Shown in pieces: positions 4,506-11,636 of a stretch of 31,838 bases of DNA (its first letter is position 1; every line of letters begins with the position of its first letter). The notes under the pieces were generated by a model. The model did no database searches and had not been told where the DNA came from. It saw only the letters and a list, made by a program, of their open reading frames with translations. The DNA lies in the IMG/VR virus record IMGVR_UViG_3300042356_000868, positions 1-31,838 of that record; one strand, 5' to 3'. The translations under genes were made by a program, and so were the position numbers. The DNA is from a virus.

Positions 4506-4541
4506 TGCTTGCGTATAACAACGAATAGAGGAAGTACAAAT

Positions 4542-4668
4542 AGTCAGGTGGCGGAATGGTAGACGCAAATGCCACTCGGAGAAGAAGGAACTACGCCAAC
4601 ATCTCCTTGCAAGTGGTAGGGTATCCTAAAGAGTAAATCCCATACAGGTTCGAGTCCTGTCCTGACTG
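4542..4668 (+). ncRNA. tRNA-like element 2 with expanded anticodon arm
   Basis: AGTCAGG (4542-4548) pairs with CCTGACT (4661-4667). The D arm is identical to element 1, and the T arm is perfect: ACAGG, loop TTCGAGT, CCTGT (4644-4660). Discriminator G at 4668; CCA not encoded. The anticodon stem CCACT/AGTGG (extendable by two pairs) encloses 35 bases instead of 7; inside, GGAGA can pair with TCTCC or AAGGA with TCCTT. The variable region is 25-27 bases with GGG/CCC ends. An intact acceptor/T domain with an abnormal anticodon domain suggests selection on the half recognised by EF-Tu and RNase P rather than on decoding. Confidence 0.6.
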
Positions 4669-4680
4669 CAAATTCAAACG

Positions 4681-5001
4681 ATGCTAAAAAGACCAAAATA
4701 CAACAACAAGAAAACAAACGTCAACGGCATTCTATTCGATAGCAAGAAGGAAGCCGATAGATACGTTTTTCTGACCCGTAGAGCGACGAACGGAGAGGTG
4801 CTTGACCTACACCTCCAAGTGCCTTTCGTTTTCGCCTTAGAAGGCAAAAAAATGTTCACGTACAAAGCCGATTTCGTTTACTACGACAAAACGCTAAGCA
4901 AGACGATAATCGAGGACGTTAAAGGTATGCGCACACCGTTGTATAAACTGAAAAAGAAACTAATCGAAAACCAACACCAAATCACAATCACGGAAACATG
5001 A
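4681..5001 (+). CDS. DUF1064 family nuclease-like protein
   Basis: The 106-residue protein opens with KYNNKKTNVNGILFDSKKEA (residues 6-25), the typical start of phage DUF1064 proteins (S-K-x-E-A near residue 23). It continues with a strand-rich core, FTYKADFVYYD and IIEDVKGMRTPLYKLKKKL. The arrangement E24, D65, E78-D79-V-K81 fits the PD-(D/E)xK nuclease fold, and members are often discussed as Holliday-junction or structure-specific endonucleases. That role is known from fold comparison, not shown here. The next gene starts at ATGA of its stop codon. Confidence 0.75.
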   Translation: MLKRPKYNNKKTNVNGILFDSKKEADRYVFLTRRATNGEVLDLHLQVPFVFALEGKKMFTYKADFVYYDKTLSKTIIEDVKGMRTPLYKLKKKLIENQHQITITET

Positions 5002-8536: not shown

Positions 8537-8948
8537 TTTCCTCGATCGTTGTATGAGCAACACGGTTATGAAATCGGAGTACCCCGATAGCATCCAGCGT
8601 TTGGCGGTGTGCAATGCTTTGAACCGAAAGGAAAGCTACCAAAAGTTTGAAAGCTACAACGACTACCCGAAGGCGGTTAGCAATAACGCAAAGCGTGGTA
8701 TTGAACTAAACGAAAAAGAGGGTAACAAATGTGCGACCCAAGTCGGTAAGGTTAGGGCGCAACAACTGGCAAATGGTGAGCCGTTAAGCGTTTCCACGAT
8801 TAAACGGATGTACTCGTATTTGAGCCGTGCGAAACCGTATTATGAAACGGGTACGCCTTCCGATTGCGGTTATATTTCCTACCTTCTTTGGGGTGGTTTA
8901 GCGGGGTTACGTTGGAGCGAATCAAAGTTGAAGGAGTTAGGATTATGA
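8496..8948 (+). CDS. Conserved phage protein, probable capsid- or packaging-associated
   Basis: A 150-residue protein of two parts. Residues 1-48 (PLPKREQDESKVDFLDRCMS, then a cluster ending AVCNALNRK) resemble a short domain seen in phage head-region proteins. Residues ~55-150 (YPKAVSNNAKRGIELNEKEG, CATQVGKVRAQQLANGEPLS, VSTIKRMYSYLSRAKPYY, GGLAGLRWSESKLKELGL) resemble a repeatedly observed domain attached to phage prohead proteases or head proteins in Bacteroidota phages. I recognise these patterns but no proven function. Its position three genes before the terminases fits a DNA-packaging or head role. Confidence 0.55.
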   Translation: MPLPKREQDESKVDFLDRCMSNTVMKSEYPDSIQRLAVCNALNRKESYQKFESYNDYPKAVSNNAKRGIELNEKEGNKCATQVGKVRAQQLANGEPLSVSTIKRMYSYLSRAKPYYETGTPSDCGYISYLLWGGLAGLRWSESKLKELGL

Positions 8949-9133
8949 GCGATCAACCCAACGTAATTGATGAAGCCATTGGGGCGGTTCAGTTGTACAG
9001 CGAAATCGCAGGTTTGCTGATTGATATTTTGCACACGGCCGATGCGGTAAGCGTTGGTGGTTCTGCTGATTATGAATTGAAGTTGATGTGCATCACCAAA
9101 TTGAAGGCAATCGTTGAAAAAATTGAAGTGTAA
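8945..9133 (+). CDS. Hypothetical 62-aa protein
   Basis: ATG 8945 overlaps the previous stop by ATGA, and the stop overlaps the next ATG (TAATG), so translation is well supported; the longer frame to 8864 is inside the previous gene. Helical throughout (DEAIGAVQLYSEIAGLLIDI, ELKLMCITKLKAIVEKIEV). No family recognised. Confidence 0.6.
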   Translation: MSDQPNVIDEAIGAVQLYSEIAGLLIDILHTADAVSVGGSADYELKLMCITKLKAIVEKIEV

Positions 9134-9582
9134 TGCCACGGGGAGAGAATTTCAAAAATAAAGAGGTAGCAAAGAAGCACGGCTTTGGAGCGCACCCCGA
9201 AAACATCAACCGCAATGGAAGACCACGGGCGTTGAGAAACGTTATCAAAGACGTTTTCATGGAAGAGTTTGACATTACGCTTTCAGCAAGTCAAGCCAAT
9301 GATATGATTATGGCAATGCTTTGCATGACTGAAAAACAAGTTAGCGATTTGGGCGAACGTGAGGACGTTCCCTTTTGGTTGAAGATGATTTCAAAGAAAA
9401 TGGAGCGTGATATGAGCCGAGGTTCTGTTCACTTGATGGAAGTTCTTTTCGATAGGGTTTACGGAAAGCCGAAGGAAACGGTTGACACTACCGTATCCAT
9501 GCCACAAGCTGAAATCAAAGTGGGCGTGATTAAAAGCGATGTTGGTTTAGCTGATTCCGAGGATGCAATAATTTTGGATTGA
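9133..9582 (+). CDS. terS: Probable terminase small subunit
   Basis: The 149-residue protein lies directly before the large terminase, with the stop and next start overlapping as TGATG. The N-terminal segment has the GRPRALRNVIKD arrangement (residues 29-40) often seen in small terminases of Bacteroidota phages. A central helical part (LSASQANDMIMAMLCMTEKQ) is followed by RGSVHLMEVLFDRVYGKPKE near 96-116. It would recognise phage DNA and regulate the large subunit ATPase/nuclease. Assignment depends on position and the general pattern rather than a catalytic motif. Confidence 0.65.
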   Translation: MPRGENFKNKEVAKKHGFGAHPENINRNGRPRALRNVIKDVFMEEFDITLSASQANDMIMAMLCMTEKQVSDLGEREDVPFWLKMISKKMERDMSRGSVHLMEVLFDRVYGKPKETVDTTVSMPQAEIKVGVIKSDVGLADSEDAIILD

Positions 9583-9941
9583 TGTTTCAGACTTCGGTAA
9601 TATTTGAGCGCAATTACAATTCAATTGCCGAGGTGGTGGTGAACCAAGGGGGGACTTCTTGTTTCCACCCTGATACAATGATTGTAACAAAAGATGGTAA
9701 TAAACTAATTTCACAAATTCAAAATGGTGATATTGTTTTATCGTACAATGAAACAACGAAAGAGAATGAATGGAAGGTAGTTACTGATACGTTTAAATAT
9801 CTAAACACAAAACCAACTATTCGTATAAAATTAAAGAATGGTAAAGAAATAATTTGCACGGAAGATCATAAGTTTTTTTTCAAGGGGGGTTGGGTTTCTG
9901 TAAAACATATCGTATCTTGTATACATGAAACAAATCCCTAA
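9582..9941 (+). CDS. terL: Large terminase N-extein with N-half of split intein
   Basis: Starts at ATG 9582 (overlapping the small terminase stop); TTG 9579 also opens the frame. Residues 1-26 are the terminase N terminus ending NQGGTS. Residues 27-119 are the N half of an intein: block A CFHPDTMIVTKDGNKLISQI with catalytic Cys27 (9660-9662), GDIVLSYNE, and block B CTEDHKFF with the T-x-x-H motif (93-96). The frame ends at 9939-9941. The intein breaks the Walker A motif exactly: GGTS here joins SGKT in the gene at 10425. Splicing, in trans or after frameshifting, is required to make an ATPase. The intein DNA is more AT-rich than the terminase. Confidence 0.85.
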   Translation: MFQTSVIFERNYNSIAEVVVNQGGTSCFHPDTMIVTKDGNKLISQIQNGDIVLSYNETTKENEWKVVTDTFKYLNTKPTIRIKLKNGKEIICTEDHKFFFKGGWVSVKHIVSCIHETNP

Positions 9942-10440
9942 ATTCTCTCGTTATTGCCTAGATGAGCAAGGAAACATTTATTCTACCAATTACAAAAACA
10001 CTGGTAAGATTAAGATTTTAAAGCCAGCACCTCAAAAAGATGGTTATCTAAAAACCATGATTTTGGGTGATGATGGTAAGTATTTAAGCAAGTCAATTCA
10101 TAAGTTGATGGCTAATACATATTTTGGGGAACATAAAGGACTCCAAGTCAATCATAAAAATGGCATTAAAACAGATAATTCGTTAAGCAACCTTGAATTA
10201 TGTACTGCAAGTGATAATATAAAACACGCTTTTCGAAATGGTTTAATGAAGCCAAAAAGAGGTGAGTTAAACGGAATGAGTAAACTAACCAAAGAACAAG
10301 TTAAAGAAATTAGGGATTATGTAGCTAATTTCCAAGGAAGGTATTACGGGCGTAAGGCATTGGCTGAAAAGTATGGTATTAGTGAAGCGCATTTAAAAGA
10401 TATTGTAAACAGACGCAGGGATATATGGATGGAGTGTTGA
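9925..10440 (+). CDS. HNH homing endonuclease between intein halves
   Basis: A 171-residue protein in a different frame, overlapping the N-half ORF by 17 bases and the C-half ORF by 16. Residues 8-70 (YCLDEQGNIYSTNYKNTGKI) resemble a NUMOD-type DNA-binding segment. 75-105 form the HNH_3 core, with VNHKNG (75-80) and NSLSNLELCTASDNIKHAF. 116-168 hold a helix-turn-helix (LTKEQVKEIRDYV, RKALAEKYGISEAHLKDIVN). Such enzymes cut intein-free alleles and spread the element by repair. Encoding it as a separate gene between split intein halves is the 'fractured gene' layout described for some phages. No Shine-Dalgarno is seen before its ATG. Confidence 0.85.
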   Translation: MKQIPKFSRYCLDEQGNIYSTNYKNTGKIKILKPAPQKDGYLKTMILGDDGKYLSKSIHKLMANTYFGEHKGLQVNHKNGIKTDNSLSNLELCTASDNIKHAFRNGLMKPKRGELNGMSKLTKEQVKEIRDYVANFQGRYYGRKALAEKYGISEAHLKDIVNRRRDIWMEC

Positions 10441-11636
10441 ATATAGAAGACATTGAAAGTTGGGAGTACGTAGAATGTGATTATGTACACGATTTTACCG
10501 TACAAGACAATCATTGTTACTATATTCATGCAGGAAAGGATATTTTAGTCCATAATTCTGGTAAAACTTACTCGATCCTCCAAGTCCTTTGCTTGAAAGC
10601 CATTGAACAACCCGACCAAGTTATTAGCGTGGTAGGTCAGGACGTGCCGAACTTGAAGAGCGGTGCGCTCCGAGATATGCAGTCAATCGTTGCGAGTTCT
10701 ACGGATATTCAGAGTTGGATAAAAGGGTACAATGCGAGCGATCGTATCTTTACATTCCACAACGGGTCAATCATTGAGTTTAAAAGCTACCAAGATTCCC
10801 AAGATGCAAAGAGCGGAAAGCGTGACTACTTCTTCCTGAATGAAGCGAACGGGATAAGCTTTGAGATTTATTCCGAACTTGCAATGCGTACCAAGAAGAA
10901 GGTGTACATTGATTACAACCCGAATGCTCGTTTTTGGGTGCATGATAAGTTGATAGGCAAAGAGGGAACGGAGTTGATTATTTCAGACCACCGACACAAC
11001 CCATTCCTTCCCGAGATCATTCGCAAAAAGATCGAAGCGTTACGTGAGGACGACGAAGAACTTTGGAAGGTTTACGCCCGTGGGGTAACTGGTAAAATTG
11101 AAGGGTTGATTTACCGCAATTGGGGAACGATTGGCACGATACCAACGGAAGCGCAATTGATTGGCATGGGGTTAGACTTTGGATTTACCAACGATCCAAC
11201 CGCCTGCGTGATGGTGTACCGATACAATGGTGAGTTAATTATTGACGAACTTTTATACCTTAAAGGGTACACAAATCAGGATATTGGCCAATTCTTTACC
11301 CAATCGGGTATAAATAAGAGCGTTTCAATTATTGCCGATTCAGCAGAACCCAAGTCAATCGAGGAACTTAGGCGCATGGGTTGGAGAGTTGAGGGTGCCA
11401 ATAAAGGGAAAGATAGCATACTAAATGGCATCGATATATTGAAACGATTTAGGTTTAGCGTAACGAGTAGGAGCTCGAACCTAATCAAAGAATTGAACGC
11501 CTACAAGTGGAAGGAAAAAGATGGGAACGCTACCAACGTACCCATTGACTCATTCAACCACGGGATGGATGCTTTGAGGTATTTAGCATTGAATAAATTA
11601 GCAGAAAAAAACAGAGGTATTTATGGCATCAAATAA
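10425..11636 (+). CDS. terL: C-half of split intein fused to large terminase ATPase/nuclease
   Basis: Residues 1-44 are the intein C half, with block F (VHDFTVQDNHCYYIHAGKD) and terminal HN (43-44); Ser45 is the +1 splice residue. Then comes the terminase: SGKT (45-48, rest of Walker A), Walker B YFFLNEA (135-141), and the RNase H-like nuclease with acidic residues D251 (LDFGFT), D305 (ADSAEP) and D382 (FNHGMDALRY). All catalytic residues are present, so after splicing the motor should be functional. The reading frame is the same as that of the N half (both start at positions divisible by three), with the endonuclease gene inserted between. The next gene overlaps by 14 bases. Confidence 0.9.
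   Translation: MDGVLNIEDIESWEYVECDYVHDFTVQDNHCYYIHAGKDILVHNSGKTYSILQVLCLKAIEQPDQVISVVGQDVPNLKSGALRDMQSIVASSTDIQSWIKGYNASDRIFTFHNGSIIEFKSYQDSQDAKSGKRDYFFLNEANGISFEIYSELAMRTKKKVYIDYNPNARFWVHDKLIGKEGTELIISDHRHNPFLPEIIRKKIEALREDDEELWKVYARGVTGKIEGLIYRNWGTIGTIPTEAQLIGMGLDFGFTNDPTACVMVYRYNGELIIDELLYLKGYTNQDIGQFFTQSGINKSVSIIADSAEPKSIEELRRMGWRVEGANKGKDSILNGIDILKRFRFSVTSRSSNLIKELNAYKWKEKDGNATNVPIDSFNHGMDALRYLALNKLAEKNRGIYGIK

What the first reader, a model, noticed from the sequence alone, without database searches (positions are those of the whole stretch)
9582..11636. Terminase large subunit split inside its Walker A motif by a split intein with an HNH gene in between
The sequence shows GGTS followed directly by an intein N half (Cys27, block A, TxxH), then an independent HNH homing endonuclease ORF. 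A 44-residue intein C half follows, ending HN, and then SGKT. Joining the exteins recreates GGTSSGKT, an intact Walker A. The three ORFs overlap by 17 and 16 bases and the two halves share a frame. Fractured genes with split inteins and free-standing endonucleases are known, and atypical split inteins in terminases have been described. This split gives about 93 and 44 residues, unlike the very short N-half type. An essential ATPase is thus hostage to the element.
Basis: partly seen in the sequence, partly recalled or inferred. Interest (0 to 1): 0.85.

Follow-up and report, generated by a model that had tools for sequence, protein, structure and literature searches.

The report
Mobile split intein in phage terminase
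A virus of bacteria has its DNA-packaging motor gene broken in two by a mobile element made of two intein halves, which should splice the motor protein back together, and a DNA-cutting enzyme gene between them that spreads the element; it is one of a family of such elements that sit in the ATP-binding loop of phage motor genes.

Summary
Joining the exteins gives GGTSSGKT, the uninterrupted sequence of related TerLs without the element; the nearest is 99% identical in protein and 92% in DNA. It is not an assembly error: the same three-gene layout recurs in 27 loci (19 clusters at 95% HNH identity, window included), in the Walker A motif of divergent TerLs and of DnaB-type helicases. In 18 of 19 clusters the C-half start codon is nested on one conserved Trp codon of the HNH gene. 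The HNH is I-HmuI-like (profile E 5e-17) and under strong purifying selection. In several pairs of relatives the element is nearly identical while the host gene beside it has diverged, the mark of recent homing. Rival readings (frameshifted continuous intein, group I intron, pseudogene) fail. The general arrangement ('fractured gene': split intein plus free-standing endonuclease) is known; the I-HmuI-type nuclease, the nested start, the P-loop-wide family and the nuclease-loss and re-fused stages make it a new variant. Trans-splicing and cleavage are inferred, not shown.

The parts
9582..9659 (+). TerL N-extein, 26 aa, ending ...NQGGTS
   Evidence: 70-96% identical to residues 1-27 of element-free TerLs
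9660..9938 (+). Intein N half, 93 aa: Cys1, block A, block B TxxH (CTEDH)
   Evidence: TIGR01445 E 2.5e-12; best solved relative by profile is gp41-1 intein 6riz, E 7e-10
9925..10440 (+). Free-standing HNH homing-type endonuclease, 171 aa, I-HmuI-like, with a helical C-terminal part
   Evidence: PF13392 E 3e-9; family profile to I-HmuI 1u3e E 5e-17; AF2 model to 1u3e Foldseek E 3.5e-8; dN/dS 0.077
10425..10556 (+). Intein C half, 44 aa, ending ILVHN
10425..10428 (+). ATGG: C-half start codon nested on the HNH gene's conserved Trp codon (A|TGG)
10557..11636 (+). TerL C-extein, 359 aa, starting SGKT (Ser+1)
   Evidence: TIGR01547, PF04466, PF17288
9659..10557 (+). Insertion junctions (last base of N-extein, first base of C-extein); element-free relatives read GGTS|SGKT without gap

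Best explanation
This is a mobile 'fractured gene' element. Two class-1 split-intein halves sit on two separate TerL gene fragments. The halves associate after translation and should trans-splice, joining GGTS to SGKT and so restoring an unscarred Walker A. Between them lies a separately translated I-HmuI-type HNH homing endonuclease. It presumably nicks or cuts element-free TerL alleles at the P-loop DNA of co-infecting phages; repair from the element-bearing copy then spreads the whole 897-nt block. The C-half start codon is nested in the end of the HNH gene, so the C half is probably translated by coupling or reinitiation from the HNH gene. Shown here: anatomy, recurrence, element-free alleles, purifying selection, horizontal spread in relatives. 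Inferred: trans-splicing, cleavage, translational coupling.
For: Splicing residues are present and conserved across the family: Cys1, TxxH, terminal HN, Ser+1. Element-free alleles join exactly at GGTS|SGKT; the window's TerL groups with an element-free one at 99% identity. The three-ORF layout recurs in 27 loci, 19 clusters. HNH dN/dS is 0.04-0.11. Homing mark: element dS 0.00-0.05 against TerL dS 0.57 (L211/L222); 0.09-0.16 against 1.14 (L228/L234); L207/L219 element 98.2% identical beside helicase DNA at 80-85%. HNH is I-HmuI-like by profile and by fold. A continuous relative at the same site models as a HINT/intein fold (gp41-1, Npu DnaE, Ssp DnaB). The element is 30-36% GC against 42-46% for its flanks.
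Against: No biochemistry. In the window lineage itself, element and TerL are equally diverged from the only close element-bearing relative (L062; HNH dS 1.8, TerL dS 1.6), so recent gain of this particular copy is not shown; old presence with losses is possible. The homing marks come from other family members.
Confidence: 0.9

Rival explanations
1. One continuous intein with an internal HNH domain, made by programmed frameshifting or appearing broken through sequencing error.
For: Neighbouring ORFs overlap; a shift-prone CCC-TAA occurs at the N-half stop in the window, and T8/G6 homopolymers lie just upstream.
Against: Independent contigs share the layout. N-to-HNH junctions vary from a long overlap to a 6-nt gap and use all three frames. 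CCC-TAA is not shared by L062. The HNH gene starts with its own ATG across the family. L213 keeps the split without any HNH gene.
Confidence: 0.04
2. A group I or II intron carrying an HNH gene, spliced at RNA level.
For: I-HmuI, the nearest solved HNH relative, is an intron-encoded enzyme (own knowledge).
Against: No Rfam match at E up to 1 over 9000-11000. Both flanks of the HNH gene encode intein halves with conserved catalytic residues and start or stop codons.
Confidence: 0.01
3. A decaying element: an HNH gene has disrupted an intein and TerL is now a broken gene.
For: HEGs do decay in the family: the L224 HNH is truncated to 145 aa and L213 has lost it.
Against: C-extein and HNH both have dN/dS about 0.08; catalytic residues are intact; no second TerL was noticed in the contig.
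Confidence: 0.03
4. Genes-in-pieces TerL: the two fragments work as separate non-ligated subunits.
For: A phage ribonucleotide reductase split by a homing endonuclease gene is reported to work as two peptides (PMC10448857).
Against: The break is inside the catalytic Walker A motif and both fragments carry conserved intein halves with intact splicing residues.
Confidence: 0.02

Closest known systems
'Fractured genes' with split inteins and free-standing endonucleases (Dassa et al. 2009, NAR 37:2560; paper not held, content from own knowledge and citations)
   Same: Conserved enzyme gene broken by a split intein, with a separate endonuclease gene between the halves; the window IntN profile hits gp41-1 intein best among solved structures
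   Different: Endonuclease there is of a Vsr-like family (own knowledge); here an I-HmuI-type HNH. Here the C-half start is nested in the nuclease gene and the site is Walker A.
Pseudomonas phage MIJ3 DNA polymerase B split intein with ORF154 (PMC6892783; LR588166)
   Same: Three-gene layout: polB N part, endonuclease, polB C part
   Different: Host gene is PolB. Its 560-aa endonuclease is called HNH but matches no Pfam HNH model and is not similar to the window's HNH. Overlaps are 8 and 0 nt.
Mycobacteriophage TerL P-loop inteins TerL1-a and -b (PMC5050341)
   Same: Inteins in the Walker A motif of TerL; splicing and endonuclease activity tested for -b
   Different: Continuous inteins in Terminase_1, not split genes
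I-HmuI, HNH homing endonuclease (PDB 1u3e)
   Same: Homology and fold of the nuclease over nearly full length
   Different: Intron-encoded (own knowledge); here paired with a split intein
Atypical split inteins of terminases (AceL-TerL, GOS-TerL)
   Same: Naturally split inteins in terminase genes
   Different: Very short N half there (own knowledge); 93 aa here

Membership tests
Class 1 split intein | N-terminal Cys1 nucleophile and block A | tested here: met
   Cys at residue 27, TIGR01445 E 2.5e-12; Cys1 invariant in 18 aligned members
Class 1 split intein | Block B TxxH | tested here: met
   CTEDH in the window; T-x-x-H in all 18
Class 1 split intein | C-terminal His-Asn and a Cys/Ser/Thr at +1 | tested here: met
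   ILVHN|S in the window and relatives
Class 1 split intein | Halves encoded on separate ORFs | tested here: met
   same in relatives
Class 1 split intein | HINT fold | tested here: inconclusive
   Modelled for a continuous relative at the same site (L231), not for the window's own two halves
Class 1 split intein | Trans-splicing activity | not testable with these tools
   needs an experiment
Fractured gene (Dassa 2009) | Conserved gene broken by a split intein with a free-standing endonuclease between the halves | tested here: met
Fractured gene (Dassa 2009) | Vsr-like endonuclease (own knowledge of that family) | tested here: not met
   Nuclease is HNH_3 / I-HmuI-like. It is filed under the arrangement, not under that endonuclease family.
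I-HmuI-type HNH homing endonuclease | Sequence and fold homology over nearly full length | tested here: met
   E 5e-17; Foldseek E 3.5e-8
I-HmuI-type HNH homing endonuclease | Residence in a group I intron | tested here: not met
   no Rfam match; so it is I-HmuI-like, not an intron enzyme
I-HmuI-type HNH homing endonuclease | Site-specific nicking of the element-free allele | not testable with these tools
   needs an experiment
Atypical (short N half) TerL split intein | N half of about 25 residues | tested here: not met
   93 residues

The most novel reading that the evidence does not exclude
One lineage of I-HmuI-type nuclease has been locked to a split intein through a C-half start codon nested in the nuclease gene, and this unit spreads by cutting Walker A DNA, which let it cross between terminases and DnaB-type replicative helicases; after loss of the nuclease the split persists (L213) or the halves re-fuse into a continuous mini-intein (L220). 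That would be a full life cycle between split and continuous inteins.
Probability: 0.5. Interest if true: 0.68.

Novelty: new variant of a known kind. Interest (0 to 1): 0.57.

Why it matters
It gives a natural series (element-free, split with nuclease, split without nuclease, continuous) at one gene site, which makes the open question of how split inteins arise and are lost directly testable. The same element type occurs in two different phage motor genes, so the role of conserved P-loop DNA as a homing target can be tested. It also offers many new natural split inteins with N halves of about 87-105 residues, C halves of about 43-48 residues, and Ser+1.

Tried and rejected
Frameshift or assembly error: rejected by recurrence and by variable junctions. 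Group I/II intron: no Rfam match. Bacterial genomes: an HNH alignment scan found none; the pattern ILVHN|SGK in genome contigs gave 17 matches, none with a recognisable intein C half. Cultured phages: the window's IntC found no match and a helicase-type IntC only weak matches to RNR inteins, so no cultured carrier was found. A TAnnTTTG promoter-like motif 12 nt before many HNH starts: the window's copy is degenerate and the motif is not enriched in the window (29 against 34.7 expected), so it is not part of the claim. MIJ3 as a precedent for an HNH-bearing split intein: its nuclease matches no Pfam HNH model and is unrelated to this one.

Full report
Observation. The three ORFs, overlaps and motifs are exactly as described. 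The N ORF carries 26 TerL residues and then a 93-residue intein N half (TIGR01445 E 2.5e-12). The middle ORF is an HNH_3 endonuclease. The third ORF has 44 residues ending ILVHN and then TerL from SGKT on. Frame 0 between the halves is full of stops.

Element-free alleles. A search of IMG/VR with the two TerL parts found about 60 loci, nearly all uninterrupted. Aligning the joined flanks gives alignments that run across the junction without a gap there, up to 92% DNA identity, with GGTS|SGKT. In a TerL tree of 56 rows, 44 of them element-free, the window groups with element-free L002 (99% protein identity), and the only close carrier (L062, called L200 in later calls) is nested in a different supported group of element-free phages. 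Whether this is two gains or repeated loss cannot be decided for this pair, because both element and host are near saturation (HNH dS 1.8, TerL dS 1.6).

Recurrence. L062 and L063 have the identical layout with 171-aa HNH genes and the same 16-nt HNH/C-half overlap. HNH- and intein-based searches and the pattern for ILVHN|SGK raised this to 27 loci with a full-length HNH gene, 19 clusters at 95% HNH DNA identity, window included. Hosts are divergent TerLs (down to about 20% identity) and DnaB-type or Toprim-containing helicase genes (the C-exteins of L215 and L232 have no Pfam match and are called helicase type by their Walker A context and intein clade). In 18 of 19 clusters the C-half ATG begins with the A just before the HNH gene's conserved Trp codon TGG, which fixes the overlap at 16 nt (TerL) or 19 nt (helicase). 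The N/HNH junction by contrast is loose. This fixed nesting fits inheritance of HNH and C half as a unit and suggests coupled translation (inference).

Mobility. HNH dN/dS is 0.04-0.11, so the nuclease is maintained. In L211/L222 the element has dS 0.00-0.05 while TerL has 0.57; in L228/L234 0.09-0.16 against 1.14; in L207/L199 0.04-0.43 against 1.79. For L207/L219 element identity is 98.2% while adjoining DNA is at 80-85%. A tree of IntN+HNH+IntC puts the helicase elements on one side of a branch (98/97), and groups the TerL elements L211, L202 and L228 with them against the window's clade (100/100); one switch of host gene suffices. The root is not known, so the direction is not shown.

Nuclease. 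The 14-row HNH family matches I-HmuI by profile (E 5.4e-17), and the model (pLDDT 87) by fold (E 3.5e-8; TM about 0.54 with a large rmsd, so the parts are probably placed differently). Several members also match NUMOD4; the window's copy does not at the cut-off used.

Intein. The window IntN profile hits gp41-1 intein best. Continuous inteins at the same P-loop site exist (L203, L214, L220, L231), and L231 models as a HINT fold close to gp41-1, Npu DnaE and Ssp DnaB inteins. L220 retains Met-Glu-Ala at the position of the C-half start of split relatives, as expected if the HNH gene was lost and the halves re-fused; L213 has no HNH gene but stays split. The reverse order, with L220-like inteins ancestral, is not excluded.

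Known or new. The arrangement is the known fractured gene. MIJ3 PolB is a published phage case with a nuclease called HNH, but that protein matches no Pfam HNH model and is unrelated to this one. P-loop inteins in TerL are known as continuous inteins. I found no description of I-HmuI-type nucleases between split-intein halves in the papers held; the key 2009 paper and most of the intein literature are not held, so this is weak evidence of absence. Verdict: real, mobile, new variant of a known kind.

Noticed in passing
L220:8151-8588; L213 (reverse complement, about 8673-9110): L220 is a continuous mini-intein that keeps Met-Glu-Ala where the C half begins in split relatives; L213 is split but has no HNH gene. 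They look like re-fused and nuclease-loss stages.
   Followed up: partly
just upstream of the HNH start in many family members, e.g. L211:441-452: TATCTTTG-like motif (resembling the Bacteroidota TAnnTTTG -7 element) at a fixed -12 position before the HNH ATG, with a CAAAGAT...ATCTTTG dyad in the helicase clade; coding constraint may explain it, and the window's copy is degenerate.
   Followed up: partly
L217:3179-3847: HNH protein with an extra N-terminal segment of about 50 residues, possibly a further DNA-binding domain.
   Followed up: no
L224 (HNH 4509-4946 of the match strand): HNH gene truncated to 145 aa although both intein halves are present: a decaying nuclease or a sequencing error.
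   Followed up: no
L209: Split intein in TerL with an unrelated 66-aa ORF in place of the HNH gene.
   Followed up: no
L112:2912-5799: DnaB-like helicase broken by a split intein with a 346-aa restriction-endonuclease-like protein (weak MTES_1575 match) between the halves: resembles the classical fractured-gene type.
   Followed up: partly
L195:2440-6750: DNA polymerase gene with one large continuous intein and apparently a second, split intein with only a short gap between its halves.
   Followed up: no
LR588166 MIJ3_00154 (L254:2471-4153): Annotated HNH homing endonuclease III but has no Pfam HNH match; the published 'HNH' label may be wrong.
   Followed up: partly
window 9936-9941: The N-half ends CCC-TAA, a shift-prone context that would lead into the HNH frame; not shared by L062.
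   Followed up: partly
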